From assembly GCA_024195265.1 (NCBI GenBank), contig JAJLRJ010000011.1:21431402-21495401 (forward strand): 64,000 bases of DNA, read 5' to 3'. Position numbers and translations under genes: made by a program. The stretch comes from Dendrophyllia cribrosa (taxonomy: Eukaryota; Cnidaria; Anthozoa; Scleractinia; Dendrophylliidae). Shown piece after piece: positions 32,495 through 53,304 of this stretch. Each line of letters begins with the position of its first letter. The stretch's first letter is position 1. A model generated the notes under the pieces. It saw only the letters and a program-made list of their open reading frames with translations, ran no database searches and had not been told where the DNA came from.

Positions 32495-32500
32495 CTAACT
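32495..32500. other. Left target site duplication of the Polinton
   Basis: CTAACT directly before the AGTAGT terminus; the same six bases follow the right terminus at 52485-52490. Six bases is the known Polinton duplication length. Confidence 0.95.
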
Positions 32501-32586
32501 AGTAGTTATAGACTTGGGGATACCAGCTCAGTTTTGTCAAACTGATCTGTTATCGACCCAAGTCTAAACTACTTTCCATATAATGG
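32501..32586 (+). repeat. Left terminal repeat of the Polinton, palindromic
   Basis: The outer 73 bp (32501-32573) is a near-perfect palindrome: AGTAGTTATAGACTTGGG pairs with CCCAAGTCTAAACTACT with one bulge, and the inside (CAGCTCAGTTTT / AAACTGATCTG) pairs too. It is followed by TTTCCATATAATGG, which the right end shares in inverted orientation (19 bp ACTACTTTCCATATAATGG in common). The middle of the palindrome differs between the two ends. Confidence 0.9.
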
Positions 32587-33370
32587 TAACCAGCTTTTTG
32601 AAATCTATATGTTTTCAGTTTTTGAAATCTATATATTTATTTAAATGAATAATGCGTTCATTCCATTTTGCGTTTTCACCTCATTAAAAAGCAATTTTTG
32701 AGTCGGTATTACGCCATGATTTCTAAAAACATGGTTACATTGCGTGACACAATTCTCGGAAACACAGGAAGTCTTTGATTCTTAGAAAAATAGGAAGTTG
32801 ATGACAATATGCGCGCGTCTCTGGGTACTTCTTTACAATTTCTTCAAAATAACCATAAACATCTTTCAGTAAATCGTTGACAGACATCCTTCAGTCGCTG
32901 GTCGCTTCGTTCCACTTATGTGAATAAACGGCTAACGCGTTAGCGATAAAAGCTTGAGAAAAATTTCGTGTGAAGATCTGATTGGTTGTTGAAATATGCC
33001 AATTACGTCTGGATTTACATATCAAGTGATTTTAGATAAAACAATGGGAAATATCGCTAACGCGTTAGCCGATTTTTACATGTTCGCTATTTTTGTTTTC
33101 TGGGAATTTAGACACGTGCTGACACAATTCTCGGAAACACAGGAAGTCTTTGATTCTTAGAAAAATAGGAAGTTGATGATGTCATGGGACTTTCCTGCTG
33201 ACTATTTTTGTTCTATTGTATTCAAGGTCATATTAGATAAAACAATGGGAAATATCGCTAACGCGTTAGCCGATTTTTACATGTTCGCTATTTTTGTTTT
33301 CTGGGAATTTAGACACGCACCGCTTATAGCTATTGTTTTAAAAAAATATAATCTCATATAATAGTATAGA
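32587..33370. other. Left non-coding arm with direct repeats and a repeated 14-bp palindrome
   Basis: No gene. A 60-bp block (32745-32804) recurs at 33120-33179, and an 85-bp block (33032-33116) recurs at 33233-33317. The perfect palindrome GCTAACGCGTTAGC occurs at 32931, 33056 and 33257. A partial fourth copy of the first block ('agaaaaataggaagt') lies at 33950. It looks like a control or replication region next to the terminus. Confidence 0.75.
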
Positions 33371-33937
33371 ATGAATTATTGTAATTTGGATATTCACGAT
33401 TATATGATGAGTATTGGTGAGTTGACCTGTCCCTTTTGTGATGAGCAATTGGCAGAAGTTGACAGAAGTGTGATAGTGGTCAAGTCATGCTGTAGTGAAC
33501 AAGATATAAATAGTATAGATGGTATGAGCGTCTGTCTAAATTGCGGTTCCGTCCATGGTTATGAATTAGTTAATTCATATGTTGACTTTCATGAAAATTT
33601 ATATAGAATAAGAAAAAAGAGTGTATATGTAAGAAAATATCATATCGAAAATACAATCAATAAATATATAAAAGAGATTCATTTAAGTTTTAATGACCGT
33701 AACAAAATATATAAGATTTTTGGATTAATAAACAACGTGTTACCAGAAGTCAATAAGAACCGGAAACGGATGATTAGTGTAACCTATGTTTTGAGAAGAT
33801 TATTAAAAATTTTAGGATTACCTTATGATAAAATAAAAATAACTTCTTCTAAAAAGACATTAAAATTTTATGAACAATGGTGGGATGATGTTTATAAATT
33901 AATAAAGAATGATGTCAACAAAATTATTAAAAGGTGA
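33371..33937 (+). CDS. VLTF3-like late transcription factor
   Basis: 188 residues. An N-terminal zinc ribbon (C20-x2-C23 ... C55-x2-C58, with a CC pair at 40-41) is followed by RKYHIENTINKYIKEIHLSF, NRKRMISVTYVLRRLLKILG and SKKTLKFYEQWWDDVYKLIK. This layout matches the poxvirus late transcription factor VLTF3 family found in large DNA viruses and some Polintons, which is expected to switch on late promoters. It is the only rightward gene in the left third. The AT box CATATAATAGTATA sits right before the ATG, as for the capsid genes. Assignment is by motif recall; a general TFIIB-like zinc protein is the alternative. Confidence 0.6.
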   Translation: MNYCNLDIHDYMMSIGELTCPFCDEQLAEVDRSVIVVKSCCSEQDINSIDGMSVCLNCGSVHGYELVNSYVDFHENLYRIRKKSVYVRKYHIENTINKYIKEIHLSFNDRNKIYKIFGLINNVLPEVNKNRKRMISVTYVLRRLLKILGLPYDKIKITSSKKTLKFYEQWWDDVYKLIKNDVNKIIKR

Positions 33938-34032
33938 CCTGTTGCATGATTCTCAGAAAAATAGGAAGTCATACGTCATGTGAAGGGTTTTTCCCTTTGA
34001 ATGAATTATAAAATAAAATTTACTTTTAAGGT

Positions 34033-34515
34033 TTATTCAAATTTTTTATCATATTTTTTCTCAAATTTATCGGCAAGAGGACAAATATCGATGATTATTT
34101 CGTCTAACTGTCTCATTTCATTGATGAATATATTGTGGTTGAAATGATTTCCTCTAAGACAAGACCGTAAAAAAACTAATACTTTTTTATATGTCGTATA
34201 AGCAAATTCAGACATTTCGATTTTCTTTTTATAATTCTTGATTTCACTTACTGTTTTTAGCACTAAACCAGCTCCAGAAATAGAAGCTAGTATAGCAGGA
34301 TTTAATGTGATACTACCAGCTACAGTACCAATAACTATTAAGCCTGTTGAAGTTACATTAATAGCTAAATTCAATCTCTTAAAATATTTGAAAGCCTTCA
34401 TATAACACCAAAATCTTTTGTGGTAGAATCGGTATAATGCTTTGATTTCAGATAATTTTTCTTGGCTGATATATCTGTCAATATGATTAAAATTGAATAT
34501 TTCTGTTTTCGTCAT
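34033..34515 (-). CDS. Two-transmembrane-segment Polinton protein
   Basis: 160 residues. A basic helix (FYHKRFWCYMKAFKYFKR) precedes two adjacent hydrophobic segments (about 50-68 LAINVTSTGLIVIGTVAG and 72-88 LNPAILASISGAGLVLK). Then come a lysine-rich loop and a helical C-terminal half ending CPLADKFEKKYDKKFE. The same arrangement recurs in cnidarian Polintons (recalled), so it is a conserved accessory membrane protein, perhaps virion-associated or acting on the host membrane. It lies at the left end of the leftward gene block with an AT-rich box (TATATAATATAAA) right before the ATG. Confidence 0.6.
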   Translation of the reverse strand: MTKTEIFNFNHIDRYISQEKLSEIKALYRFYHKRFWCYMKAFKYFKRLNLAINVTSTGLIVIGTVAGSITLNPAILASISGAGLVLKTVSEIKNYKKKIEMSEFAYTTYKKVLVFLRSCLRGNHFNHNIFINEMRQLDEIIIDICPLADKFEKKYDKKFE

Positions 34516-34540
34516 TTTATATTATATATTTGGATAATAA

Positions 34541-34942
34541 TTATATTTTAGGATTTGAAAGAAGACAATAAATTACACCACTTATTTGACCCATTATTGG
34601 TGATCTTTTTAATTTCTTCGGCATTGAAAGGAAGCAATATGTGTATCCAGGCCCCATTTCATAGTCATTATAAAATCTTCCAAATGCATCATGAAAAATA
34701 GCATGTTTAATTAAAAATTGGTAATTGGTATTTAGAGTACAAGAACCTGGTCCTATTAATCCAATGTCAGGGTGTTTTTCTAATATTTGGTTAAATGATA
34801 TTGGCTTATTCAAATAGTTAATGTACAAATATTGATAAATTAAAGAAGATTTCAAGATTTCATCTTTAGTATTAGGATGCAGGTTTTTTTGAGTTGTAAA
34901 AAATTTATTGCAAAAATTAATTGCGTTATCCAAATTCAGCAT
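34541..34942 (-). CDS. Unknown 133-residue protein
   Basis: I do not recognise this protein. It has a helical N-terminal half (NAINFCNKFF, DEILKSSLIYQYLYINYLNK) and a glycine/aromatic C-terminal half with YEMGPGYTYCFLSMPKK. No signal peptide; five cysteines. It is flanked closely by the membrane protein (25 bp downstream) and the fibre gene, all leftward, and has the same AT box (AATTATATTATAT) abutting the ATG, so it is probably a late gene. Confidence 0.6.
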   Translation of the reverse strand: MLNLDNAINFCNKFFTTQKNLHPNTKDEILKSSLIYQYLYINYLNKPISFNQILEKHPDIGLIGPGSCTLNTNYQFLIKHAIFHDAFGRFYNDYEMGPGYTYCFLSMPKKLKRSPIMGQISGVIYCLLSNPKI

Positions 34943-35125
34943 ATATAATATAATTATATTAATTTATGGTGCTGTGTATTCGATTAATAATGAAATGTCT
35001 TGATTTTTAACCGTTTCAACCATCTCCACAGCCATATGACCGTATGGTAAATCTAAGTTTATATCTATCGTTTGTCTTTGACCTCCAGATAAAGTATAGG
35101 TTATTGTTTGAATTAAAGAGAATCC

Positions 35126-37018
35126 TTAGAGTATTTTTAAGGATATTGTTTGGTAGGAAACATCTAAGAGATTATAGTGGCCTGTTATTTTTTTTAATTT
35201 GCTACCGTTTGGAATCATGATTTTGTCACAACCATTTAATAAAAATGTTTTTCCACCACTTTCATTTGTTTTTAATTGCCCAAATAAGTGATGGGTTGCA
35301 TTCATGATTTTGTGTGAATTCATATCAATATCGGTCTCCATCACCATTTTGTTATTTTCATAAACAAAGGGAGAATCATAAACAGAACTTTCAACATCTG
35401 ATTGAGAACCTTTAACGCCATAAATAATCAGCTTTGCTGGGCCTTGAACAACATCGTCAGCTGTCCCTTTCCATTTCAGATCCAGATAAATGAATTCAGG
35501 TGGAGAAATCTGCCATTTATGCATGTGAATAATTGACCTTGAATACTTCATAAATTTTTTTGTTGATTGTTGATTGATATTCAGGCTTGTGCTCACAACG
35601 TCAACGCTCACACCCGTCATGGAAGCGGGAAAGAATTCAATACAAATCGTATATTCTCCTTCTGGAAGTTTTAACATGTTGAAACCAAGTCTCCCAGAGT
35701 ATTCATTGAAAACATCTTTTGTTATTTTCAAATTATACGCCTTCTTATTGAAATGATGTGGAGAACTTGAAAAATCAGTTATTCCAGTCACTGTTATATT
35801 ATGTTCAGAGCTGGATTCATCCACATCCTCCATCAAATACCGGAATTCATCCTTCAAGTGGGAGGTTGACGATATATGCGATTCATTGACATATTTTTTG
35901 AGTTCAGCTTCTGTTTTGATCAGTTCCTCTGCCAGAGCTACTGTCTTCTCATTTAGCTGTGTATCAACATATTGTTTTGATGTTGCTTCATTGGATGTTT
36001 TTGGATCGGGAAGACCGATGATTTTCTCCGATCCCATATCAAGAGTACCAGTCATTGTTCCACCAGATAAAGAAAGCCTTTTGTCTGCTTCATCATCTAC
36101 ATACCCTTTATTCACAGCATGATCAACTGCTGTTGGATCTTTTATATTGAAAATTGTATTATTATTCATATCCAAACCAGTCTCCATTGACAACATCTCT
36201 TTACGACTGACAAAAATGTTTTTGACGTCATTATAAGATACAAGATTGTTATAACTTGCTGCTAAATCTATGTAAGTCTGTTGTTTTGACTTGACGATAT
36301 TGTAAAGTTCTTTCAAATCAATATTTGATGTAATATTTTGAGTATGTGGAATAGTATTTATTTTTGTATCAACATATTCTTTAGTGGTTGAATCTTTATT
36401 ATTCGTGGGGGGTTGTAAATTTATGATCTTCTTATTTTTAGCATCATAATGTTGACCATCATAGTTCATGAAATGTACCTTTCCATGATAAAAAGGAAAA
36501 GCATCGTTATCACCAGCTGCTTGTATATTTAATATAGTATGATAATTAGCATCCATGTGATCAGTTAATACTATTCTTTCATTTTTCATATATGCATCGG
36601 TAATGTGAGCTTTCTCATCAACCTTATTCTTGAGAGTTATCATGTTAACAGCTGATAAATCGTCATTTTCATCAGTGTCCATGTTCGTGATTAATTTTCT
36701 ATCCATATTTATCTCACCGGGTAAAATTAGTTTATGTCCCCTCAAATCAAGATCTCCAGTCATATGAGATGATCCGTCAACCTGAAGAGAATCAGCCCTC
36801 AGTTGAATCAGTTTGTTTTCCAAACTTGTTCCAAGCGTGTCAACCTGATGCTTTGTAATCACGTCGTTATTGTTAATAGCTTCTGCAACATTTGTTAATC
36901 TTTTATTTTGAATATCATAATTTCCGTCAACTGTTAATACAAATCCGACACCAGGTAATCCACGTTGAGGATTATTATTAAATGTTGATTCAGGTAAACG
37001 TCCGTTTGAGTAACTCAT
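35126..37018 (-). CDS. Fibre-like protein with tail-fibre-type repeats (contig copy 1)
   Basis: 630 residues. From about 35 to 345 it has repeats of the kind seen in phage tail fibres: (a) ...NKRLTNV...TKHQVD, (b) KKIINLQPP...TTKEYVDTKI, (c) NTIFNIKDP...VNKGYVDD, (d) EKIIGLPDP...TSKQYVDTQL, plus 'MTGDLDLRGHKL' and 'MTGTLDMGSEKI' words. A coiled-coil stretch follows (LAEELIKTEAELKKYVNESH), then a beta-rich C-terminal head (GEYTICIEFFPASMTG, PEFIYLDLKWKG). It probably forms a trimeric attachment spike at the penton vertex. An in-frame TAA (35126-35128) ends it, but 53 more sense codons follow in the same frame to a stop at 34964. A candidate protease site LPGVG is at residues 21-25. Confidence 0.75.
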   Translation of the reverse strand: MSYSNGRLPESTFNNNPQRGLPGVGFVLTVDGNYDIQNKRLTNVAEAINNNDVITKHQVDTLGTSLENKLIQLRADSLQVDGSSHMTGDLDLRGHKLILPGEINMDRKLITNMDTDENDDLSAVNMITLKNKVDEKAHITDAYMKNERIVLTDHMDANYHTILNIQAAGDNDAFPFYHGKVHFMNYDGQHYDAKNKKIINLQPPTNNKDSTTKEYVDTKINTIPHTQNITSNIDLKELYNIVKSKQQTYIDLAASYNNLVSYNDVKNIFVSRKEMLSMETGLDMNNNTIFNIKDPTAVDHAVNKGYVDDEADKRLSLSGGTMTGTLDMGSEKIIGLPDPKTSNEATSKQYVDTQLNEKTVALAEELIKTEAELKKYVNESHISSTSHLKDEFRYLMEDVDESSSEHNITVTGITDFSSSPHHFNKKAYNLKITKDVFNEYSGRLGFNMLKLPEGEYTICIEFFPASMTGVSVDVVSTSLNINQQSTKKFMKYSRSIIHMHKWQISPPEFIYLDLKWKGTADDVVQGPAKLIIYGVKGSQSDVESSVYDSPFVYENNKMVMETDIDMNSHKIMNATHHLFGQLKTNESGGKTFLLNGCDKIMIPNGSKLKKITGHYNLLDVSYQTISLKIL

Positions 37019-37151
37019 ATATATATATAACTAAATTTATTATATTTCTTCATTGAAATTCTTAGTTGTGAATTTCCTTGGTTTGTCTATATATAAAAAT
37101 GAAAATGGTTCATCAGTTGCTTTATCATATAATTCTTTTGGAATACTATTT

Positions 37152-37625
37152 TCACGGCAAATTAGACTCCTCATTAGCACTTGGGAATTCGTAAATAGAG
37201 AAATGTGAACAGTTCAATCTTATGTCTTTTGGTGTCTTATAGTAGCTTTGACTCAGATAAATCACACTGCAATTTTTATGTCTCCCACGTATAAAATAGT
37301 CGACTAATGGTTTTTGATTTTTTTCACATACAAAATCGTCAAAAATAACCAATTTCTGACTTTCACTATCAAGATCATTTACAGGAATAATCTCGTTATT
37401 ACTTGCTTCAATAACATCATAACCAGCTTCATCACTTATTGGCTGGAACATATCTATAAGATTCTGGTACTTGGACTGCTCTAAGTTTTTCGCATACAGG
37501 TATATTTTATCAAAGTACAATAAATGTAAATCATATGCATAAGTGTATTTGTTTTTCCCGAACCACTTGGGCCGCAGACCAACATCCGGAAGCATCGGTC
37601 AGGCATGAAAGGATATAACTGTTTA
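37152..37625 (-). pseudogene. Packaging ATPase, contig-end copy with a 1-base deletion
   Basis: Nearly identical to the gene at 39945-40466 but runs into the N gap. Relative to that copy it lacks one base near 37525 (TAAATGTAAATC versus TAAATCGTAAATC), which breaks the frame between the Walker A region and YLYAKNLEQ, and has one substitution nearby. The difference lies about 100 bp from the contig end, where sequence errors are common. I read it as an assembly or allelic copy, not a second gene. Confidence 0.75.
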
Positions 37626-38125
37626 NNNNNNNNNNNNNNNNNNNNNNNNNNNNNNNNNNNNNNNNNNNNNNNNNNNNNNNNNNNNNNNNNNNNNNNNNNN
37701 NNNNNNNNNNNNNNNNNNNNNNNNNNNNNNNNNNNNNNNNNNNNNNNNNNNNNNNNNNNNNNNNNNNNNNNNNNNNNNNNNNNNNNNNNNNNNNNNNNNN
37801 NNNNNNNNNNNNNNNNNNNNNNNNNNNNNNNNNNNNNNNNNNNNNNNNNNNNNNNNNNNNNNNNNNNNNNNNNNNNNNNNNNNNNNNNNNNNNNNNNNNN
37901 NNNNNNNNNNNNNNNNNNNNNNNNNNNNNNNNNNNNNNNNNNNNNNNNNNNNNNNNNNNNNNNNNNNNNNNNNNNNNNNNNNNNNNNNNNNNNNNNNNNN
38001 NNNNNNNNNNNNNNNNNNNNNNNNNNNNNNNNNNNNNNNNNNNNNNNNNNNNNNNNNNNNNNNNNNNNNNNNNNNNNNNNNNNNNNNNNNNNNNNNNNNN
38101 NNNNNNNNNNNNNNNNNNNNNNNNN
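37626..38125. other. Assembly gap of exactly 500 N
   Basis: The left contig ends inside the ATPase gene and the right contig starts inside the fibre gene at a place already present on the left (35334). The round number suggests a placeholder of unknown true size. Confidence 0.98.
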
Positions 38126-39810
38126 GTCTCCATCACCATTTTGTTATTTTCATAAACAAAGGGAGAATCATAAACAGAACTTTCAACATCTGATTGAGAA
38201 CCTTTAACGCCATAAATAATCAGCTTTGCTGGGCCTTGAACAACATCGTCAGCTGTCCCTTTCCATTTCAGATCCAGATAAATGAATTCAGGTGGAGAAA
38301 TCTGCCATTTATGCATGTGAATAATTGACCTTGAATACTTCATAAATTTTTTTGTTGATTGTTGATTGATATTCAGGCTTGTGCTCACAACGTCAACGCT
38401 CACACCCGTCATGGAAGCGGGAAAGAATTCAATACAAATCGTATATTCTCCTTCTGGAAGTTTTAACATGTTGAAACCAAGTCTCCCAGAGTATTCATTG
38501 AAAACATCTTTTGTTATTTTCAAATTATACGCCTTCTTATTGAAATGATGTGGAGAACTTGAAAAATCAGTTATTCCAGTCACTGTTATATTATGTTCAG
38601 AGCTGGATTCATCCACATCCTCCATCAAATACCGGAATTCATCCTTCAAGTGGGAGGTTGACGATATATGCGATTCATTGACATATTTTTTGAGTTCAGC
38701 TTCTGTTTTGATCAGTTCCTCTGCCAGAGCTACTGTCTTCTCATTTAGCTGTGTATCAACATATTGTTTTGATGTTGCTTCATTGGATGTTTTTGGATCG
38801 GGAAGACCGATGATTTTCTCCGATCCCATATCAAGAGTACCAGTCATTGTTCCACCAGATAAAGAAAGCCTTTTGTCTGCTTCATCATCTACATACCCTT
38901 TATTCACAGCATGATCAACTGCTGTTGGATCTTTTATATTGAAAATTGTATTATTATTCATATCCAAACCAGTCTCCATTGACAACATCTCTTTACGACT
39001 GACAAAAATGTTTTTGACGTCATTATAAGATACAAGATTGTTATAACTTGCTGCTAAATCTATGTAAGTCTGTTGTTTTGACTTGACGATATTGTAAAGT
39101 TCTTTCAAATCAATATTTGATGTAATATTTTGAGTATGTGGAATAGTATTTATTTTTGTATCAACATATTCTTTAGTGGTTGAATCTTTATTATTCGTGG
39201 GGGGTTGTAAATTTATGATCTTCTTATTTTTAGCATCATAATGTTGACCATCATAGTTCATGAAATGTACCTTTCCATGATAAAAAGGAAAAGCATCGTT
39301 ATCACCAGCTGCTTGTATATTTAATATAGTATGATAATTAGCATCCATGTGATCAGTTAATACTATTCTTTCATTTTTCATATATGCATCGGTAATGTGA
39401 GCTTTCTCATCAACCTTATTCTTGAGAGTTATCATGTTAACAGCTGATAAATCGTCATTTTCATCAGTGTCCATGTTCGTGATTAATTTTCTATCCATAT
39501 TTATCTCACCGGGTAAAATTAGTTTATGTCCCCTCAAATCAAGATCTCCAGTCATATGAGATGATCCGTCAACCTGAAGAGAATCAGCCCTCAGTTGAAT
39601 CAGTTTGTTTTCCAAACTTGTTCCAAGCGTGTCAACCTGATGCTTTGTAATCACGTCGTTATTGTTAATAGCTTCTGCAACATTTGTTAATCTTTTATTT
39701 TGAATATCATAATTTCCGTCAACTGTTAATACAAATCCGACACCAGGTAATCCACGTTGAGGATTATTATTAAATGTTGATTCAGGTAAACGTCCGTTTG
39801 AGTAACTCAT
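38126..39810 (-). CDS. Fibre-like protein, partial (contig copy 2)
   Basis: Same sequence as 35334-37018 at a fixed offset of 2792 bases; I see no difference within the gene. It lacks the last part of the C-terminal head because of the gap. The frame continuing through the gap to 37531 is meaningless. It probably represents the other haplotype or an unmerged overlap. For the description of the protein see the complete copy at 35126-37018. Confidence 0.75.
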
Positions 39811-39944
39811 ATATATATATAACTAAATTATATTATATTTCTTCATTGAAATTCTTAGTTGTGAATTTCCTTGGTTTGTCTATATATAAAAATGAAAATG
39901 GTTCATCAGTTGCTTTATCATATAATTCTTTTGGAATACTATTT

Positions 39945-40466
39945 TCACGGCAAATTAGACTCCTCATTAGCACTTGGGAATTCGTAAATAGAGAAATGTG
40001 AACAGTTCAATCTTATGTCTTTTGGTGTCTTATAGTAGCTTTGACTCAGATAAATCACACTGCAATTTTTATGTCTCCCACGTATAAAATAGTCGACTAA
40101 TGGTTTTTGATTTTTTTCACATACAAAATCGTCAAAAATAACCAATTTCTGACTTTCACTATCAAGATCATTTACAGGAATAATCTCGTTATTACTTGCT
40201 TCAATAACATCATAACCAGCTTCATCACTTATTGGCTGGAACATATCTATAAGATTCTGGTACTTGGACTGCTCTAAGTTTTTCGCATACAGGTATATTT
40301 TATGAAAGTACAATAAATCGTAAATCATATGCATAAGTGTATTTGTTTTTCCCGAACCACTTGGGCCGCAGACCAACATCCGGAAGCATCGGTCAGGCAT
40401 GAAAGGATATAACTGTTTATAATTTGAGGTTACATCATCATCGGCATCGTAATTTGGTATTATCAT
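39945..40466 (-). CDS. FtsK/HerA-type (A32-like) genome packaging ATPase, C-terminus frameshifted
   Basis: 173 residues. Walker A is GPSGSGKTNT near residues 34-43; Walker B is KLVIFDDFV near 107-115; GRHKNCSVIYLSQSYYKTP carries the sensor-like strand with Ser/Gln. This is the usual N-terminal and core part of the Polinton packaging ATPase that drives DNA into capsids. The frame stops early, after NEESNLP. The next frame on the same strand is open from there for about 40 codons to a stop at 39833-39835 and looks coding (acidic/aromatic, then lysine-rich), so a +1 shift near 39960 is likely. Both contig copies share it. It is divergent from the 40602 gene across a 135-bp spacer. Confidence 0.8.
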   Translation of the reverse strand: MIIPNYDADDDVTSNYKQLYPFMPDRCFRMLVCGPSGSGKTNTLMHMIYDLLYFHKIYLYAKNLEQSKYQNLIDMFQPISDEAGYDVIEASNNEIIPVNDLDSESQKLVIFDDFVCEKNQKPLVDYFIRGRHKNCSVIYLSQSYYKTPKDIRLNCSHFSIYEFPSANEESNLP

Positions 40467-40601
40467 TTATATTATATGGGTATATTATTTCAATATAACA
40501 TGGTGTATAACACGGTGTACAACACAGTGTACAACACGGTGTAAAATGCTCTTTTTTATATATGATTTCCAAATTTTATGTAACCTAATAATATAATAAA
40601 A
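40467..40601. promoter_or_regulatory. Divergent intergenic region with four 12-bp repeats
   Basis: 135 bp between the leftward ATPase and the rightward structural block. At 40497-40544 four head-to-tail 12-mers occur: AACATGGTGTAT, AACACGGTGTAC, AACACAGTGTAC, AACACGGTGTAA. Each contains a near-palindromic ACACNGTGT. AT boxes flank both start codons. It is a candidate bidirectional promoter with binding sites for a dimeric factor. Confidence 0.65.
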
Positions 40602-41615: not shown

Positions 41616-41637
41616 TTTATGTAACTTTATTATATAA

Positions 41638-42384: not shown

Positions 42385-42401
42385 TATAACATAATAGTAT
42401 A

Positions 42402-44158: not shown

Positions 44159-44222
44159 AATAAATATCCTTATTTCATATATATTATGTGAAATTTTATA
44201 TAATATATATTATATATAAGAA

Positions 44223-45494: not shown

Positions 45495-45505
45495 CTTATA
45501 TATAT

Positions 45506-45664
45506 ATGACGAAAAGTTATTGTGTAAAGCAGAAGAAAGTCACTGAATGTGTACCAGGAAGCGAACGATATGTGAAAACTAAAAATGGTCGAACTATGTT
45601 GAAATGCACTTGCGCTGAATGTGGAATTACTAAATCTCGTTTTGTTAAGAACCAGGGAAACTAA
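45506..45664 (+). CDS. DUF5679-like small zinc protein
   Basis: 52 residues, too short for most gene finders. YCVKQKKVTE ... VKTKNGRTMLKCTCAECG followed by ITKSRF matches the small DUF5679-type ribbon found in many DNA viruses and Polintons (recalled): C-x2-C, a KNGR turn, C-x2-C and a terminal R/F. Here the second ligand of the first pair is Gln9 instead of Cys, so zinc binding may be weakened or use Cys15 or Cys34. Starts 11 bp after the protease gene and its TAA overlaps the ATG of the next gene by one base. Confidence 0.65.
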   Translation: MTKSYCVKQKKVTECVPGSERYVKTKNGRTMLKCTCAECGITKSRFVKNQGN

Positions 45665-46290
45665 TGGAGCCTTCACAAGCGGGGGGCTTTCTTGATATAA
45701 CAAATTCCCACACGCTTGGTGAAATTGCAGCTAAAAGTGCTTTAAAAGGTTTGTATAATTTAGGCAGAATCGGAGCATCAAAAGCAATTAAATCTGATTT
45801 TGCAAAACGAAAGATTAAGGGTACTGTAAACAAATACCTCGATCAAGCGCTTGACAGTTTCACATCGGATTTATCGAAAAAACTAGACCCTATTCATGGT
45901 AGAGGCGTAGACGTTCATGCATTTATTGGGAAGCTTCCGAAACCAAAAGGAGGGTGGACATTACCTGGTCATAAATATACTGGCCCATATAATGATTTAA
46001 ATAGTCAAGTGAAATATGACCCAACGACTGGCCAAATATTAGAAATATACGACAAACCAACGGGTAAAACTGATGCAATAGCAATGCAACACGATGTTGA
46101 TTATTCAGTCTGCAAGGATGATAGGAAATGTAAAAATAAGGCAGACAGAAAAATGGTCAAAGCTTCAGATGAAGTACCATATGATGAGAGACAATGGGGT
46201 CATTGGTTGGCTAGAAACACGATTGATATGAAACAGAAATTAGGTCTTGGTGTTAAAAAAAGGAAGCCAAAAAACGGAAAGCGGCGTTGA
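45664..46290 (+). CDS. Virion phospholipase A2 protein (parvovirus-VP1-type domain)
   Basis: 208 residues. The N-terminal 75 residues are helical and basic; a predicted adenain site IHGR|G lies at 77-81. The PLA2 domain follows: calcium loop YTGPYNDLN (105-113), the catalytic pair in AIAMQHDVDYSVC (His143, Asp144; Tyr147), a cysteine/lysine loop and WGHWLARNTIDM. This is the group found in parvovirus VP1 and some Polintons, which opens endosomal membranes during entry. Key residues are all present. Cleavage at 77-81 would release the enzyme domain, but that is inference. Its end overlaps the integrase frame, and the tail contains a run of seven A. Confidence 0.8.
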   Translation: MEPSQAGGFLDITNSHTLGEIAAKSALKGLYNLGRIGASKAIKSDFAKRKIKGTVNKYLDQALDSFTSDLSKKLDPIHGRGVDVHAFIGKLPKPKGGWTLPGHKYTGPYNDLNSQVKYDPTTGQILEIYDKPTGKTDAIAMQHDVDYSVCKDDRKCKNKADRKMVKASDEVPYDERQWGHWLARNTIDMKQKLGLGVKKRKPKNGKRR

Positions 46291-47234
46291 GTAAAAATGA
46301 TTGGACTCAACAATTAGCCGATGAATTACATAAACCAATCAAACGAAAATTTAAAACAATAAGAGTTATTGTTAATGGAATAGATGATATTTGGAGCGCT
46401 GACCTTGTAGAAATGCAGAAGTTTTCAAAATGGAATAAAGGATATAGATATTTGTTAAACATCATTGATGTGTTTTCAAAATTTGCTTGGAGCATTCCCA
46501 TTAAAAATAAAACAGGTAATACAATTACTGAATCATTTGATGATGTTATTAAAAAGTATAAAAGAAAACCGAAATATTTATGGGTAGATCAAGGATCTGA
46601 ATTCTATAATAAAACTTTCAAAGACTGGCTAAAGAAAAATAATATTGAGATGTATTCTACTTTCAATGAAGGTAAAGCTGTTGTTATTGAGAGATTTAAC
46701 AGAACATTAAAATCTAAAATGTGGAAACAATTTACAGCTCAAAATACAACACAATATTTAGACATGTTACCAAAACTATTAAATGAATACAACAGTACAA
46801 AGCATTCAAGCATCAAAATGAAACCGGCAGAAGTAAATAAAAAGAACGAGGGAAGTGTATATCTCACTTTATATGGTGATATGGAACCATCATCATCAAA
46901 AGTAAAATTCAAAGTTGGTGATAAGGTTAGAATTTCAAAGTATAAAAGAAAGGTATTTGATAAAGGATATACAAGTAATTGGACTGAAGAGGTATTCACA
47001 GTTGATAAAATCCAATACACAAACCCTATTACATATAAGTTAAAGGATCTTAATAATGAATCAATAGAAGGGTCATTTTATGAACCTGAATTACAATTAG
47101 CAAAACAGGATGTATTCAGAATTGGCAAAGTCATTAGGAGGGATTACAAGAAAAAACAAGCTTTGGTATCATGGTCTGGTTATCCAAAAGAATTTAATTC
47201 ATGGATACCGTTAAAAGATGTCAAAAATATCTAA
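46287..47234 (+). CDS. Retroviral-type integrase with C-terminal chromodomain
   Basis: 315 residues if read from the TTG at 46287. The DDE core has Asp39 (WSADLVEM), Asp101 (LWVDQGSEF) and Glu135 (VVIERFNRTLK), 33 residues apart for the last two. An SH3-like segment (KFKVGDKVRISKYKR) and a chromodomain (FRIGKVIRRDYKKKQALVSW ... FNSWIPLKDV) follow. The first ATG in frame (46413) lies after the first catalytic Asp, and an in-frame TAA at 46254 blocks further extension. The usual N-terminal HHCC domain is absent. So either a non-ATG start is used, a -1 shift from the PLA2 frame at the A7 run (46255-46261) feeds it, or the 5' end is lost. Confidence 0.8.
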   Translation: MSKNDWTQQLADELHKPIKRKFKTIRVIVNGIDDIWSADLVEMQKFSKWNKGYRYLLNIIDVFSKFAWSIPIKNKTGNTITESFDDVIKKYKRKPKYLWVDQGSEFYNKTFKDWLKKNNIEMYSTFNEGKAVVIERFNRTLKSKMWKQFTAQNTTQYLDMLPKLLNEYNSTKHSSIKMKPAEVNKKNEGSVYLTLYGDMEPSSSKVKFKVGDKVRISKYKRKVFDKGYTSNWTEEVFTVDKIQYTNPITYKLKDLNNESIEGSFYEPELQLAKQDVFRIGKVIRRDYKKKQALVSWSGYPKEFNSWIPLKDVKNI

Positions 47235-47246
47235 CATATATGTATC

Positions 47247-47555
47247 ATGAGTGGCATTGAGAAATATATCAAAAAAATAAATTTTCAAATTCAGGAATGT
47301 GAAGATGAAATAGACAATCTTCATGATAAAATATATGATAATGAGCGTAGATTGGATCTGTTACAATATAAAAAGAAATTATGGAAACTTTATCATAAAA
47401 AAATACATGAAATGGATGAAGATATAACATTGAAACAGTTATTGAATATTATCTGCAATGAGTTAGAAAACAATAAATACGATGAGGAATGTAATGTGTT
47501 GAAACAAACAAAAGTTGATAATATAGCTGAATTGAAAACTGAAATGAATATCTGA
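47247..47555 (+). CDS. Coiled-coil protein of unknown function
   Basis: 102 residues, almost all helical: IEKYIKKINFQIQECEDEID with heptad leucine/isoleucine spacing to about residue 55, then a second acidic helix (DEDITLKQLLNIICNELENN). No family recognised. Starts 12 bp after the integrase; the junction AATATCTAACATATATG resembles the one between protease and DUF5679 genes, so it is likely read with the late block. Confidence 0.6.
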   Translation: MSGIEKYIKKINFQIQECEDEIDNLHDKIYDNERRLDLLQYKKKLWKLYHKKIHEMDEDITLKQLLNIICNELENNKYDEECNVLKQTKVDNIAELKTEMNI

Positions 47556-47579
47556 ATATAGTTTAAAAGATTCATAACT

Positions 47580-47646
47580 GGATCATTTGAATTCTCAACC
47601 ATATTTAAACGCATATAAAGATAAAATAATATATAGTAATAATATA
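47580..47646 (+). promoter_or_regulatory. Early-type promoter 1 (GGATCA..AAACGCA..TATAAAG)
   Basis: GGATCATTTGAATTCT (47580) and AAACGCATATAAAG (47607-47620) lie 27 bp apart, 40 nt before the ATG of the first AT-hook protein, followed by AATATATAGTAAT. The same pair with the same 27-bp spacing precedes the second AT-hook gene. Confidence 0.65.
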
Positions 47647-47895
47647 ATGGAAAAAGAAGTAATAATAAAAAGAGGTAGGGGGCGACCGCCTATATACCAA
47701 ACCCAAGAAGCCAAAAAAGAAGCTATTAAAAGATCCAAAACTCGTTATATGTTAAATAAAGAGTGGTATTGCCGTGCATGTAATAACAATATCAACTACT
47801 CACTTGCTGGAAAATTCTGTCATTTGAAAACTAATAAACATATGGATAATATTAATAGGCAGATCCGTGAATTCGTTCATTTAAACACACAATAA
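47647..47895 (+). CDS. AT-hook plus C2H2-like zinc-finger protein 1
   Basis: 82 residues from the ATG at 47647 (an upstream TTG-led extension is rejected because the promoter motif lies within it). KRGRGRPPIY is an AT-hook; a basic helix follows; then WYCRACNNNINYSLAGKFCH and LKTNKH give a C-x2-C...H...H finger. It is a paralogue of the next gene. Related RGRP-K-Y plus single-finger proteins occur in large DNA viruses and Polintons (recalled). A DNA-binding early regulator is likely. Confidence 0.65.
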   Translation: MEKEVIIKRGRGRPPIYQTQEAKKEAIKRSKTRYMLNKEWYCRACNNNINYSLAGKFCHLKTNKHMDNINRQIREFVHLNTQ

Positions 47896-47931
47896 AAACT
47901 AAGAAATATATAGTTTAATGGATCCATTATT

Positions 47932-48002
47932 GGATCACTTAAATTCTTGATAAAGGTTAAACGCACTAAAAGGACTTAAAAAAATAATCATAATATATAG
48001 TA
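47932..48002 (+). promoter_or_regulatory. Early-type promoter 2
   Basis: GGATCACTTAAATTCT (47932) and AAACGCACTAAAAG (47959-47972), 44 nt before the ATG, then CATAATATATAGTA. Same order and spacing as promoter 1, although the intervening bases differ. Confidence 0.65.
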
Positions 48003-48215
48003 ATGGTGAAACAATCAAGGGGAAGACCTAAAAAATATATGACCGATGAAGAAAAACGTATTATGGGACGTCTTTATTGTAAGAAGTTTAATGACAACCC
48101 AGATAATAAATATCATTGCATTGAATGTAATAAATATTTTCATCCTGCAAGTAAATATAAACACAATAAAACTATGGTGCATAAATCGAATGCACAAAAA
48201 TACAACAACGAATAA
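48003..48215 (+). CDS. AT-hook plus C2H2-like zinc-finger protein 2
   Basis: 70 residues. QSRGRPKKYMTDEEKR is an AT-hook followed by a basic helix; YHCIECNKYFHPASKYKHNK followed by TMVH is a classical C-x2-C ... H-x5-H finger. It shares layout and promoter with the 47647-47895 gene but only modest sequence, indicating an old tandem duplication. Confidence 0.65.
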   Translation: MVKQSRGRPKKYMTDEEKRIMGRLYCKKFNDNPDNKYHCIECNKYFHPASKYKHNKTMVHKSNAQKYNNE

Positions 48216-48289
48216 CGCAAGGCGATCATAAAAAGATAATCATATATGACAAATCATATATAACTATCTCAAATTATTTCCAAAATGAT

Positions 48290-48354
48290 GCCAAAAATAA
48301 ACGCACTCTAAAAGGTACTTAAAGAAATATTATATAATTATATATATATAGATA
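48290..48354 (+). promoter_or_regulatory. Early-type promoter 3, polymerase gene
   Basis: AAACGCACTCTAAAAGGTAC at 48299-48318 matches promoter 2 (AAACGCAC-TAAAAGG-ACTT) with a 2-base insertion, 56 nt before the polymerase ATG, then a long TATATATATA stretch. The GGATCA element is not recognisable here. Confidence 0.6.
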
Positions 48355-51300
48355 ATGGAAACATCAGACTTAACAAAATTGAGTAAGTCTCAACTAATCC
48401 AAATGATATTAAAACTACAGAATGCTAAACCAGCTCCTAAAATTACAATAGTGGATAACAAAAAACAACGTAGGAGACCAATTCCTACACCAAGAAAAAG
48501 TGTTAAACAGATGGTGAATGAGTATGAAGACCATATTATTTTACCGCCGATTGAGTTCAGAGACGACTATAAACCAGTTCCAGCACCTAGAACTAAAAAG
48601 TCAGTTGCAGAAAAACCAGTTCCTACTCCAAGAACTAAAATAGAGCAAACAGACAAAGCTCTAAAAGGTTATACTAAATCCTACGAAATAAGTATTAAAA
48701 ATAACAAAGACCCGCTGGTGCAACTGCAAAACACAAGAAAGGCTATTGAATATCATATTATAAGTACACTAAAATCCATGAAAGGACTGAAATTTGTTGA
48801 AACACTCAAGGTAATATTTACCAAAATATCAAATGGAGAAACAGTGTATAAAACTGCCTATTTCAACAGTCTAGTTCAAACAATCATAAACAACCTAGAG
48901 ATCGCTGAATCACTACAAGTGTCAAAGCAAAACATATTAAACAAGATTGCAGTTTGGATTTCAGAGGGATCTGGTTGGACTGTTCAATCAGTGGAAAATC
49001 ATTATCTTAATGTTGTAAAATATCAACCAATGAGAGGCTCTTCATATATTAGACTACCCCAAGAACTCAGAAACAGTGCGAAAGGATTGATCAACATAAA
49101 AAATGAGGATAATGAATGCTTTAGGTGGTGTCACATCAGACATCTAAATCCTCAAGACAAAGACCCACAGAGAATTAAAAAAGTTGACAAACCATTCATT
49201 GAAAATTCAAATTATTCGGGGATTGAATTCCCAGTCACCATCAAACAGTACAACAAGATTGAAAAACAAAATAAGATCAACATCAATGTTTTCGGTTATG
49301 AAGACAAACAACCATACCCAATTTATGTATCAAAAGAAAAATATGAAGACCGCATGAATCTTCTTCTGATAACAGAAAATGAAAACAAGCACTATGTCTT
49401 GATTAAAGATTTCAACAAGTTAATGTACAATCAGACCAAACACAAAGAAAGAAAACATTTCTGCATGTATTGTCTTCAATGCTTCAGCTCTGAAAGAGTA
49501 TTAACTAATCATAAAGAAAACTGCATGCAAGTGAATGGCGTACAAGCAATAAAAATGCCTGACAAAGATAATAATATACTAAAATTCAACAATGTCCATA
49601 AACAACTACCAGTACCATTTGTTATTTATGCAGATTTTGAGGCTATTACTGAGAAAATACATGGTTGTCAACCCGATAATGATAAATCATACACAGAGGC
49701 TTATCAGAAGCATACAGACTGTAGTTATGGTTATAAGGTAGTTTGTTGCTATGATGATAAATACACTAAACCAGAGCAAATATATAGGGGCGAAAAAGCC
49801 GTTTACAAATTTATGGAAGCTATGCTGGGGGAAGTTAAATATTGTAAGAAGGTAATGAAAAAAGAATTCAATAAACCATTAAGAATGACAAAAGATGATG
49901 AAGAAGAATTTCAAAAAGCTAAAGAATGCCATATATGTGATATAAAATATACTGACAAAGACATTCGAGTTAGAGATCATTGTCATATAACTGGTAAATA
50001 CAGAGGCTCTGCTCACCAAGAATGTAATCTGAAACTAAGAGTAAATCCAGCAGAGATAAAAATTCCTGTTATATTCCATAATCTAAGAGGTTATGACAGC
50101 CATTTTATAATGCAAGAAATTGGTGAAATAGTCAAGAAGTATACATACAAAAATAAGAAAGGAGAAGAGAAACAGATGAATATAAATGCTATACCAAACA
50201 ACATGGAAAAGTATATGGCTTTCATGCTTGGTAATCATCTTACCTTCATTGATAGTTTCCAGTTTATGAGCTCTAGTTTAGAAAAACTGGTAAGCAATCT
50301 ACCAAAAGAATCATTAAAATATACCTCTCAACAATTCAAAGGTGAAAAGCTTAATTTAATGTCACAAAAAGGAGTCTATCCATACGACTTCATGGACAGT
50401 TTTGATAAATTCAATAAAAAACTACCACTAAAAGAAGAATTTTACAGCATATTAAATGATAAATATATATCAGATGAAGACTATAAGCATGCTCAAACTG
50501 TTTGGGAAACATTCATGCTTAAAAATATGGGTGAGTACCATGATTTATATCTTAAATCTGACATCCTTCTGTTAGCTGATGTGTTTGAAAACTTTAGAAA
50601 GACCTGTCTGCAATACTACAAATTAGACCCATGCCATTATTTTACATCTCCAGGCTTATCTTGGGATGCTATGCTAAAAATGACTAATATTAAATTAGAA
50701 CTAATGACTGATATTGACATGTTTCAATTCATTGAAAAGGGGATGAGAGGTGGTATTTCTTATATAGCTAATAGATATGGAAAAGCAAATAATAAATACA
50801 TGAAATCATACAATGAGAAGGCGCCCTCAAAGTATATTATGTATCTTGATGCTAACAATCTCTATGGTTGGGCTATGTCACAATACCTACCAACCGGCGG
50901 TTTCAAATGGATGACAGAAAATCAGATTAATAAGTTAGACTTAGCTAAATATAAAGAAGATAGCAATAAAGGTTTAATACTAGAAGTTGACTTGGAATAT
51001 CCTGAAGAATTGCACAACCTTCATAATGACTACCCATTAGGACCAGAGAAGGTTAAAGTGACTAGCAATATGTTGTCTGGGTATTGCCAAAAAATAGCTA
51101 CCAAATATAATATATCAACAGGCCTTGTACAAAAACTGATTCCAACTTTAAGAAACAAAGAAAAGTATGTTCTTCATTACAGAAATCTACAATTATACAC
51201 TGATCTCGGTTTGAAAATAACGAAAGTTTATAGAGTACTGGAGTTCAATCAGTCCGCATGGTTGAAGCAATATATTGATTTCAACACTCAGAAAAGAACT

Positions 51301-52086
51301 AATGCCAAAAATGCTTTTGAGAAAGATTTCTTCAAACTTATGAATAATTCAGTATTTGGAAAAACAATGGAAAATATCAGAAAGAGAATAGATGTTAGAT
51401 TAGTAACTAATGAGAAGAAACTATTAAAAATGACTGCTAAACCTACATATGTAAGTAGTAAAATCTTCAATGAAAACCTTGTAGCCGTTCATAAGATCAA
51501 AGAAACACTAACCCTTAACAGGCCGGCATATGTGGGTATGTGTATCCTAGATCTTAGTAAGACATTAATGTATGATTTTCATTATAACTACATCAAAAAG
51601 AAGTATAATAAGGCTAGACTTCTATTTACTGATACAGATAGTTTAACTTATGAAATCAAAGCCGAAGATGTCTACTCAGACTTCTGGAATGATAAACATT
51701 TGTTTGATAACAGCGACTACCCTGAAAGCTCATTATATTTCGATAAAACCAATAAAAAAGTAATTGGTAAATTCAAAGATGAGGCTGCAGGAATTCCTAT
51801 TTGCGAATTTGTTGGCCTACGATCAAAAATGTATAGCTATATAAAAGACAACCAATCAGGAGGTAAGACTGCTAAAGGGATTAAAAAGAATATTATCAAA
51901 AATAATATCAAACATGAAAACTATAAAAATACGCTATTTGAAAAAAAACAGATGCATCATAGAATGAAAACAATCAGAAGTTATGAAATCAATAAAGTAT
52001 CACTCAGTTGTTTTGATGACAAAAGATATCTACAAGAAGACGGAATCAACAGTTATGCATATGGCCATTATGCGATCATTAATTAA
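48355..52086 (+). CDS. polB: Protein-primed family B DNA polymerase
   Basis: 1243 residues, intact. The N-terminus has three PxPxPR motifs (P42-R47, P74-R79, P88-R93) of SH3-ligand type. A C2HC finger is at C370, C373, H386, C390. The 3'-5' exonuclease has ExoI YADFEA (D427, E429), ExoII HNLRGYDSHF (D581) and ExoIII YLKSD (D736). Between ExoI and ExoII sits an HNH/endonuclease-VII-like zinc insert (CHIC 525-528, RDHCHITGKYRG, AHQEC). Polymerase motifs: A YLDANNLYGWAM (D832), B KLMNNSVFGKTMEN (994-1007), C FTDTDSL (D1093, D1095). This is the Polinton polymerase that copies the linear genome from a protein primer. The terminal protein is expected in the long N-terminal part. Confidence 0.95.
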   Translation: METSDLTKLSKSQLIQMILKLQNAKPAPKITIVDNKKQRRRPIPTPRKSVKQMVNEYEDHIILPPIEFRDDYKPVPAPRTKKSVAEKPVPTPRTKIEQTDKALKGYTKSYEISIKNNKDPLVQLQNTRKAIEYHIISTLKSMKGLKFVETLKVIFTKISNGETVYKTAYFNSLVQTIINNLEIAESLQVSKQNILNKIAVWISEGSGWTVQSVENHYLNVVKYQPMRGSSYIRLPQELRNSAKGLINIKNEDNECFRWCHIRHLNPQDKDPQRIKKVDKPFIENSNYSGIEFPVTIKQYNKIEKQNKININVFGYEDKQPYPIYVSKEKYEDRMNLLLITENENKHYVLIKDFNKLMYNQTKHKERKHFCMYCLQCFSSERVLTNHKENCMQVNGVQAIKMPDKDNNILKFNNVHKQLPVPFVIYADFEAITEKIHGCQPDNDKSYTEAYQKHTDCSYGYKVVCCYDDKYTKPEQIYRGEKAVYKFMEAMLGEVKYCKKVMKKEFNKPLRMTKDDEEEFQKAKECHICDIKYTDKDIRVRDHCHITGKYRGSAHQECNLKLRVNPAEIKIPVIFHNLRGYDSHFIMQEIGEIVKKYTYKNKKGEEKQMNINAIPNNMEKYMAFMLGNHLTFIDSFQFMSSSLEKLVSNLPKESLKYTSQQFKGEKLNLMSQKGVYPYDFMDSFDKFNKKLPLKEEFYSILNDKYISDEDYKHAQTVWETFMLKNMGEYHDLYLKSDILLLADVFENFRKTCLQYYKLDPCHYFTSPGLSWDAMLKMTNIKLELMTDIDMFQFIEKGMRGGISYIANRYGKANNKYMKSYNEKAPSKYIMYLDANNLYGWAMSQYLPTGGFKWMTENQINKLDLAKYKEDSNKGLILEVDLEYPEELHNLHNDYPLGPEKVKVTSNMLSGYCQKIATKYNISTGLVQKLIPTLRNKEKYVLHYRNLQLYTDLGLKITKVYRVLEFNQSAWLKQYIDFNTQKRTNAKNAFEKDFFKLMNNSVFGKTMENIRKRIDVRLVTNEKKLLKMTAKPTYVSSKIFNENLVAVHKIKETLTLNRPAYVGMCILDLSKTLMYDFHYNYIKKKYNKARLLFTDTDSLTYEIKAEDVYSDFWNDKHLFDNSDYPESSLYFDKTNKKVIGKFKDEAAGIPICEFVGLRSKMYSYIKDNQSGGKTAKGIKKNIIKNNIKHENYKNTLFEKKQMHHRMKTIRSYEINKVSLSCFDDKRYLQEDGINSYAYGHYAIIN

Positions 52087-52395
52087 ATCCAATGAGACTA
52101 TGTTAAGGTATTACCAGAAGAAAACATATAGTAGTTCAAAATATATAAATTCCATAAGTTAGAAACCATTATCTATATTCCAGAAATACGAGCTCAAATT
52201 CCATGGAAACCATTATATGGAAACCATTATGTATATTCCAGAAATACGAGATCAAAAATACGAGCTCAAAAATACGAACTCAAATTATATAGAAACCATT
52301 ATATGGAAACCATAACCTATATTCCAGAAATGCGAGATCAAAAATACGAGCTCAAATTATGTAGAAACCATTATATGGAAACCATTATATGGCAA
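52087..52395. repeat. Right non-coding arm with interspersed repeats
   Basis: Two words alternate across 300 bp: TATATTCCAGAAATACGAG-(C/A)-TC (three copies) with AAAATACGAGCTCAAA variants, and AAACCATTATATGG (about six copies). CCATTATATGG is the complement of the CCATATAATGG at the inner edge of both terminal repeats, so the terminal motif has been multiplied here. No gene. Confidence 0.75.
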
Positions 52396-52484
52396 CCATT
52401 ATATGGAAAGTAGTATTTGAGTTGGGTTTGGTAACAGTGCATTTTTGCAAAAAATGCTCTGGTACCCCCAACTCCTATACTACT
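52396..52484 (-). repeat. Right terminal repeat of the Polinton, palindromic
   Basis: The outer 76 bp (52409-52484) folds on itself: AGTAGTATTTGAGTTGGG pairs with CCCAACTCCTATACTACT (two mismatches), with GCATTTTTGCAAAAAATGC at the centre (52439-52457). The inner edge CCATTATATGGAAAGTAGT is the exact inverse of the left end's 19 bp. The 6-bp CTAACT duplication follows. Confidence 0.9.
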
Positions 52485-53304
52485 CTAACTCACTCTTTAA
52501 TTTGGTTAGTTCGGATTGATGTTTTTTTATTTGGGTGCGAAGTTCTTTTAAGTTTAACTCGCCACTGTGAAATTTTTCTTCTCCGCACTTGAAAACTGTT
52601 GTGCAACGCCCGAACTCACATGTTCGCGCGCTATGTCCCAGACGCAAATGGCAGTTTCTACAAATGTTACCATCACTAGGGTCGGACTTTACCCTGTCTA
52701 ATTTCGCTACTATTTCTCTTTCCTTGTTTTGAAGGCGCCCAATAAGTTCTTGTTTCTTGGCTATTTGATCTTGTGTTTTTAAGATATAGCGCTCAAGTGG
52801 TGTTTCTTGTTTATTGTTTTCTTGTGATTTCATCGGTGTGCTCCGTGCAGGGACTTCAAGGAATTCGTCGTCAGTCTCGCATGATTCTTCTCGGCATAGA
52901 TCTAGGGATCTTCTCGCGCGCGGGGGTGCCTCTGGCAATGTTGGCAGTTTGGCCGGCCGTTTTGTTTCTCCCTCAGACTGATCAGCGCACACTTCCTGAA
53001 CTGATGGCGACTGGAATGTAAATGCTTGTAAGGTGATGTTTTTTCCTTTAGATAGTGTTTCTTTCAGTTGAAACAAAAAATAGCGTGCGGATAGGTCAAC
53101 CTCGTTTCCTTCTTCGTCAATTGTTATGCGAAGAGGTGAAGTAGACAAGCTTGTTACTTTGGCCAGGTGAGAAACCTCTTTTAGGAGACGTTTCTTGAAC
53201 GCTTCAAAATCAAACTCCAAAAGCTCATCTTCGGTTAAGAAAAATGGTGTTGTACGCTTGGAGGAATAATAGTCGTATATGACCTTAATTTGAACTAAAG
53301 ACAT
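52480..53304 (-). pseudogene. 5' part of the second gene of the DD37E transposon, cut by the Polinton
   Basis: 274 residues from ATG 53304. N-terminal globular part (IKVIYDYYSSKRTTPFFLTE ... LRITIDEEGNEVDLSARYF), a Pro/Ser-rich acidic linker, then a coiled coil (KTQDQIAKKQELIGRLQNKE). A Cys/His cluster follows (ICRNCHLRLGHSARTCEFGR ... FKCGEEKFH) that looks like a zinc knuckle pair, and another coiled coil (LRTQIKKHQSELTKLKSELE). The TAG that ends the frame is made by the AGTAGT terminus of the Polinton itself; before insertion the frame ran on into 32494. The gene may encode an accessory DNA- or RNA-binding partner of the transposase. Family unknown to me. Confidence 0.7.
52485..52490. other. 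Right target site duplication of the Polinton
   Basis: CTAACT directly after the ACTACT terminus; identical to 32495-32500. Confidence 0.95.

What the first reader, a model, noticed from the sequence alone, without database searches (positions are those of the whole stretch)
32495..52490. Near-complete Polinton/adintovirus-like element with exact 6-bp target duplication
Both boundaries are defined to the base by CTAACT duplications and AGTAGT/ACTACT termini, and nearly all expected replication and virion genes are present with long open frames. Few elements can be bounded this cleanly by eye. It may be recently active.
Basis: partly seen in the sequence, partly recalled or inferred. Interest (0 to 1): 0.9.

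Follow-up and report, generated by a model that had tools for sequence, protein, structure and literature searches.

The report
Abundant Polinton virus with hairpin ends
This is one copy of an integrated animal DNA virus (a Polinton/adintovirus) that has spread in hundreds of similar copies through its host genome; its DNA ends fold into conserved hairpins and its cell-attachment fibre carries exchangeable tips.

Summary
The boundaries hold to the base: CTAACT flanks the element at 32495 and 52485, and three uninterrupted copies of the host transposon it landed in carry a single CTAACT. Capsid, integrase, polymerase and ATPase evidence make it a Polinton/adintovirus-type provirus. Three corrections. 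(1) A 500-N gap is flanked by a duplicated 2.29-kb contig overlap, so fibre and ATPase are counted twice; real length is about 17.2 kb. (2) This copy is damaged: stop in the fibre head, ATPase frame break, short PolB deletion. (3) It is not solitary: two terminal patterns occur 415 and 396 times in this 627-Mb genome, reversed controls 0. Unexpected: each end is a ~76-nt hairpin whose arms stay complementary through paired changes (17 distinct termini), although the two ends of one element can be only 79% alike. Near-identical capsid cores sit with unrelated fibre tips, one with a cast-off tip behind it. Best reading: a recently mobile, protein-primed virus with self-folding ends as local replication origins (inferred) and fibre tips exchanged by recombination. 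New variant of a known kind.

The parts
32495..32500 (+). left target-site duplication CTAACT
32501..32576 (+). left terminal hairpin (Lt class)
   Evidence: DNA fold of the first 90 nt -23.7 kcal/mol against mean -5.7, sd 2.0 of 200 mononucleotide shuffles; conserved in other copies
33371..33937 (+). 188-aa zinc-ribbon protein, weak VLTF3-like match
   Evidence: PF04947 E 0.0024, below gathering score
34033..34515 (-). 160-aa protein with a hydrophobic stretch, function unknown
   Evidence: no significant Pfam match
34541..34942 (-). 133-aa protein, function unknown; related ORFs in other copies
35126..37018 (-). fibre ORF (630 aa), phage-type fibre repeats plus head; ends early by a stop inside the head
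   Evidence: PF03906 E 2.7e-8; profile matches phage hyaluronidases E 4.8e-5 and a tail fibre E 0.0032
35334..37625 (.). left copy of the duplicated contig overlap (assembly artefact)
37626..38125 (.). assembly gap, 500 N
38126..40419 (.). right copy of the same overlap (assembly artefact)
39945..40466 (-). packaging ATPase (Pox_A32/FtsK type); its C-terminal part continues in another frame
   Evidence: PF04665 E 3.9e-13
40602..41615 (+). 337-aa protein, function unknown
   Evidence: no significant Pfam match
41638..42384 (+). 248-aa candidate minor capsid (penton) protein, label from position and recall
   Evidence: no usable match
42402..42821 (+). 139-aa candidate membrane-active protein, weak label
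   Evidence: PF08023 E 0.0074, below gathering score
42872..44158 (+). major capsid protein, double jelly roll
44223..45494 (+). 423-aa candidate maturation protease (label mostly recalled)
   Evidence: ASFV S273R protease E 0.68 only
45664..46290 (+). phospholipase A2-domain protein
   Evidence: PF08398 E 7.1e-10
46287..47234 (+). integrase (rve) with C-terminal chromodomain match
   Evidence: PF00665 E 3.7e-14, PF00385 E 1.6e-4 below cut-off; PFV integrase E 3.1e-9
48355..52086 (+). type B DNA polymerase with terminal-protein-like fold at residues about 104-225, OTU-like Cys/His motif, endonuclease VII domain; short in-frame deletion near the C-terminus
52184..52402 (+). 86-bp tandem repeats inside the right end
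52408..52484 (-). right terminal hairpin (Rt class)
   Evidence: DNA fold of 90 nt -25.0 kcal/mol
52485..52490 (+). right target-site duplication CTAACT
29622..53575 (.). host DDE_3 DNA transposon (214-bp inverted repeats, TA at both outer edges) interrupted by the element

Best explanation
An integrated animal DNA virus of the Polinton/adintovirus kind, about 17.2 kb, inserted by its own integrase into a DDE_3 transposon. The family replicates a linear genome by protein priming: the terminal-protein domain of PolB starts synthesis at each end. It packages DNA in a double-jelly-roll capsid and spreads; its fibre tips are exchanged by recombination. Shown here: boundaries, empty site, gene content, family size, hairpin ends with paired changes, mosaic copies. 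Inferred: protein priming, particle formation, and the role of the hairpins. My preferred role for them is that each displaced single strand folds its own end back into a duplex origin, so the two ends need not match one another.
For: Empty site; exact 6-bp duplications in 14 of 15 two-ended copies; terminal patterns 415 and 396 times, reversed controls 0; capsid fold; the 50 PDB rows shown for the PolB N-terminal model are, by title or recall, Y-family polymerases aligned at about residues 104-225, as PMC11071308 describes for the terminal-protein domain of Polinton PolB (section 5, part 1 of 3 read); integrase. Hairpin: stem 2 fully paired (8/8) and stem 3 fully paired (4/4) in 17 of 17 distinct termini, with paired changes at three positions. 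The bulge between these stems lies on the 3' arm in 17 of 17. Ends of one element can be 79% alike, yet such elements moved: the window and L009/L010 have different duplications. Fibre heads: three types without useful similarity in six sampled copies.
Confidence: 0.7

Rival explanations
1. The terminal hairpin is mainly an integrase recognition device: two oppositely oriented binding sites at each end, with no part in replication.
For: Integrase present; the outer AGTAGT and inner ACTACT are mirror sites; changed outermost bases are tolerated in two copies (L011, L042); a 731-bp derivative that keeps only the terminal 82 bp of each end still has a 6-bp duplication.
Against: The apical stem, far from the cleavage site, also stays largely paired while its sequence changes (94); double-stranded integrase sites do not need a foldable loop (general knowledge).
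Confidence: 0.3
2. Parvovirus-like hairpin-transfer replication: the 3' end of the hairpin primes synthesis and is then resolved by nicking.
For: Terminal palindromes at both ends (14, 87); a PLA2-domain protein (7), a domain also known from parvovirus capsids (recalled).
Against: Orientation is fixed: the bulge is on the 3' arm in 17 of 17 distinct termini, whereas hairpin transfer inverts it (recalled). No nickase-type family among the Pfam matches listed. A terminal-protein-like fold is present.
Confidence: 0.04
3. A genome-bound transposon without infection; the fibre and capsid persist only because all copies are young.
For: Hundreds of copies inside one genome; this copy has a broken fibre.
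Against: Capsid pN/pS about 0.14 among 8 copies, window included, though these were the best protein matches and so biased; 150 of 150 scored E-type heads, of 375 candidates, have no stop; unrelated heads on near-identical capsid cores (76, 100) suggest selection at the receptor.
Confidence: 0.25
4. The duplicated fibre-ATPase block is a real tandem duplication in this copy rather than an assembly artefact.
For: Both blocks are in the scaffold (8, 14).
Against: Both blocks end exactly at a 500-N gap and share 2291 identities with 1 mismatch and two 1-base gaps (10, 14); a sister copy lacks the extra length to within 4 bp (127); paired ends in the genome have median spacings of 17.4 and 17.6 kb (108).
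Confidence: 0.03

Closest known systems
Polinton/Maverick elements
   Same: Type B DNA polymerase of the protein-primed kind, rve integrase, A32-type ATPase, capsid, 6-bp duplication, 15-20 kb size
   Different: End repeats are short (window 91 columns at 79%; 82-327 bp in 14 of 15 others) and each end is a hairpin; PMC12747079 (passage) gives several hundred bp as typical
Adintoviruses (as defined in PMC11071296, passages)
   Same: Integrase with C-terminal chromodomain match; PolB with OTU-like motif; capsid model matches an entry named 'Penton capsid protein [Adintovirus sp.]' (rank 4)
   Different: Alpha/Beta placement not tested, no reference sequences were at hand; a phage-type fibre with exchangeable heads is not in the passages I saw
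Polinton-like viruses of protists with phage-like fibres (PMC12220804, passages)
   Same: Bacteriophage-like fibres of varied domain make-up; mass expansion in host genomes
   Different: Inverted repeats there are given as several hundred bp; here the tip exchange is seen between near-identical capsid cores within one genome
Casposons (PMC4046053, section 7 read)
   Same: Self-synthesising elements in which some terminal repeats contain internal palindromes
   Different: Cas1 integration, prokaryotic hosts, no capsid
Bidnaviruses (PMC4061559, passages)
   Same: Polinton-derived PolB and terminal repeats; parvovirus link
   Different: Their terminal repeats are stated not to form hairpins

Membership tests
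[quoted passage not shown]
   PolB relatives carry PF03175 in 14 of 120 listed (the window's own PolB had no PF03175 match at E <= 1); terminal-protein-like fold at about residues 104-225. Priming itself is inferred
Polinton/Maverick | retroviral-type (rve) integrase | tested here: met
   PF00665 E 3.7e-14; PFV integrase E 3.1e-9
Polinton/Maverick | 6-bp target-site duplication | tested here: met
   window plus 14 of 15 two-ended copies; empty site
Polinton/Maverick | terminal inverted repeats (several hundred bp typical) | tested here: met
   present but short: 91 columns at 79% in the window, 82-327 bp in 14 of 15 others, none reported by blastn in 1
Polinton/Maverick | double-jelly-roll major capsid protein | tested here: met
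Polinton/Maverick | packaging ATPase | tested here: met
   PF04665 E 3.9e-13; frame broken near its end in this copy
Polinton/Maverick | maturation protease | tested here: inconclusive
   44223-45494: only E 0.68 to an ASFV protease
Adintovirus | integrase with C-terminal chromodomain | tested here: met
   PF00385 E 1.6e-4, 22.0 bits against cut-off 25.1; Rhino chain E 0.0025 over residues 288-314
Adintovirus | PolB with N-terminal OTU-like domain | tested here: inconclusive
   D252, C255 and H346 invariant in 25 of 25 rows (the OTU reading of this motif is recalled); model too weak there
Adintovirus | hexon reciprocally recognisable by BLASTp with the reference adintoviruses | not testable with these tools
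   no reference sequences held; only a fold match to an Adintovirus entry
Parvovirus-type hairpin replication | both orientations of the terminal palindrome | tested here: not met
   one orientation only in 17 of 17 distinct termini

The most novel reading that the evidence does not exclude
A Polinton lineage has replaced end-to-end panhandle origins by self-folding hairpin origins, which frees the two ends to recombine independently; together with wholesale exchange of fibre tips on a constant capsid (including a cast-off tip kept open behind the new one) this would be an endogenous virus of an animal that is still infecting and shuffling its receptor range, with the record held inside one host genome.
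Probability: 0.35. Interest if true: 0.8.

Novelty: new variant of a known kind. Interest (0 to 1): 0.6.

Why it matters
Whether Polintons of animals still behave as viruses is open. A genome with hundreds of bounded, near-identical copies makes it testable: insertion polymorphism, free linear DNA and the protein at its ends can be looked for directly. The hairpin termini give a defined structure to ask how protein-primed elements start replication, and the fibre-tip exchange on a constant capsid is a natural record of receptor change.

Tried and rejected
Related loci in IMG/VR by capsid (protein and alignment) and PolB: none confirmed. PDB by sequence for capsid and PolB: nothing useful; fibre as single sequence: best E 0.064. 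A DNA alignment of termini put the 3' stem out of register, so I counted pairs by parsing arms in a script; a first pair count on a two-sequence alignment was spoiled the same way. Rejected: chance duplication; parvovirus-type hairpin transfer; real tandem duplication of the fibre block. Host species not identified: the only named capsid relative among the 120 listed is Montipora capricornis at 78%, so a cnidarian host is inferred. Terminal hairpins in Polintons: none seen in my searches, which cover open-licence papers only; of the 20 papers listed I saw passages of four (PMC6431247, PMC4061559, PMC12747079, PMC6723459), and of the 8 the stem-loop passage of one (PMC12220804, an RNA matter). 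The others were not opened for this, so this is no proof of absence. A DOI recalled for the adintovirus founding paper was not held. The count for head B did not complete.

Full report
Boundaries. The element runs from 32501 to 52484 between CTAACT repeats. CTAACT is frequent by chance (29 in the window), so I looked for the unoccupied site. The flanks belong to a DDE_3 DNA transposon with 214-bp inverted repeats at 29622-29835 and 53362-53575 (99.5% alike), TA at both outer edges and a DDE_3 ORF at 29835-30932. Searching the host genome with the joined flanks gave five matches: the two halves in the window and three places with one CTAACT, two at 100% over 119 bases and one at 99%. In the roughly 3.1 kb held around each of those three, matching stretches are 99.0-99.7% identical to the transposon; the right-hand match is 1,092 bp in one (L068) but only 159 and 319 bp in the others. 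The insertion is therefore real and exact. In the joined site a host ORF of 275 codons on the right stays open for 19 more on the left, which alone is weak evidence.

Assembly correction. Positions 37626-38125 are 500 N. The 2,292 bases before the gap and the 2,294 after it are the same sequence (2291 identities, 1 mismatch, two one-base gaps), both ending at the gap. This is what two contigs with an unmerged overlap give. A sister copy on C16 has 7,581 bp between left end and capsid start; the window has 10,371, or 7,577-7,579 after taking off the overlap; that sister is 17,824 bp in all. Element length here is thus about 17.2 kb. Among the first 100 sites listed for each terminal pattern (99 and 100 typed), 39 and 39 plus/minus pairs lie within 30 kb, with median spacings of 17,359 and 17,621 bp; the range is wide, 731 to 29,368 bp.

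State of this copy. The fibre ORF stops inside its head. Three of six sampled copies share this head and are open there (L059, L060, L062). The genome-wide search with that head scored all 87 candidates and reports 76 matches, 64 without a stop; this copy is one of the 12 with a stop. The ATPase continues in another frame near its end, and both halves of the overlap end at the same residue; whether other copies are open there was not checked. PolB lacks about seven residues near its C-terminus that 24 of 24 aligned relatives have; right-end loci of other copies that align over the whole stretch are 21-24 bases longer there. So this copy is probably not autonomous.

Family. The capsid search gave 1,210 first-look candidates and scored 98, the window included: all full length, 98-100% identical, 96 without a stop. 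These are the best-ranked ones, so divergence is understated. Two terminal patterns occur 415 and 396 times with up to two mismatches, none for the reversed controls. They differ at three fixed positions, so a site one or two mismatches off could in principle be counted by both; the first 100 listed of each are exact. My estimate of about 400 elements, 1% of the genome, is an inference. In public proteins the capsid has 1,250 relatives, one 90% cluster holding 2,037 members. A 731-bp derivative matches the window only in its terminal 82 bp and has its own duplication AATGTA.

Hairpin ends. I fetched end regions of 20 other copies, all chosen from the capsid list. Both ends were found in 15 and one end in 5; 14 of the 15 have exact 6-bp duplications, and the fifteenth (L041/L042) fits one if its right end is 3 nt shorter. 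The 37 ends, window included, give 17 distinct terminal sequences, and each folds into a terminal hairpin of about 75 nt (-18.5 to -26.7 kcal/mol for the fetched ends); two (L011, L042) have lost the outermost pairs. For the window the folds are -23.7 and -25.0 against shuffle means of -5.7, minima -11.1 and -13.0 (200 mononucleotide shuffles each). Stem 2 (8 pairs) and stem 3 (4 pairs) are fully paired in 17 of 17, with pair changes at three positions (G-C to C-G twice, G-C to A-T once); the apical stem varies more and carries mismatches in most termini. The bulge between the two stems is on the 3' arm in 17 of 17; the same script flagged 2 of 17 with an unpaired base in the 5' arm stretch, which by the printed folds is at the outer edge of stem 2 in the T3 class. 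The two ends of one element are only 79% alike in the window and in L009/L010, and in one copy no repeat was reported; in 14 of 15 others it is 82-327 bp at 78-99.5%. Hence within-end pairing is kept more strictly than end-to-end likeness in this lineage. I read this as a self-folding origin; the integrase-site reading remains open.

Mosaic copies and fibre heads. One copy (C22:31671538) is 99.4% identical to the window over 4.28 kb around the capsid, but its left-arm tiles are 83-95% identical or unmatched (one 59-nt piece at 100%), its right-end tiles 79-97%, and its fibre shaft is 50% identical at protein level with another head. Among six copies sampled for the fibre end, three have the window's head W, two have head E, one has head B. 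W, E and B do not match one another usefully (best E 0.042). In the B copy (L064) the DNA tiles of the shaft are 95-100% identical to the window up to the head boundary; 28 nt behind its stop lies an open 128-codon E head without shaft, 69% identical to the E head of L061. Genome-wide, head E has 375 candidates, 150 scored, none of the 150 with a stop; 14 of 150 lie in open frames of at most 215 aa, that is orphaned or cut off, and most others in frames of fibre length. Public fibre relatives (36 aligned of 120 listed of 2,431) are 46-83% identical to the window in the blocks at 61-120 and 241-570 but about 20% in the last 60 residues; the first 60 residues (36-49%) and a stretch around 121-240 that most lack also vary. 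The capsid is 71-83% identical to its 46 aligned relatives.

Limits. The service answering genome searches was often busy, so head B was not counted.

Noticed in passing
29622-29835 and 53362-53575: DDE_3 DNA transposon with 214-bp inverted repeats, TA at its edges and a second ORF on the other strand, into which the element inserted; other copies of it exist in the genome.
   Followed up: yes
L065 (G000:C5:26911500-26912450): 731-bp derivative that keeps only the terminal 82 bp on each side and has its own 6-bp duplication: a MITE-like passenger.
   Followed up: partly
L064:394-780: Open 128-codon fibre head without shaft directly behind a fibre that ends in an unrelated head.
   Followed up: partly
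32931-32944, 33056-33069, 33257-33270: Three copies of the perfect palindrome GCTAACGCGTTAGC in the left arm, plus a 91-nt direct repeat at spacing 201; role unknown.
   Followed up: no
40497-40543: 12-bp tandem repeat (3.9 copies) between the two divergent gene blocks, possibly a promoter region.
   Followed up: no
52184-52402: 86-bp tandem repeats just inside the right end; their inner motif CCATATAATGG also follows the left hairpin.
   Followed up: no
9333-9993 and 20293-20969: Two 93.8% identical repeats of about 670 bp in the left flank, with a weaker third at 12048.
   Followed up: no
57710-60136: 808-aa ORF on the minus strand without a significant Pfam match.
   Followed up: no
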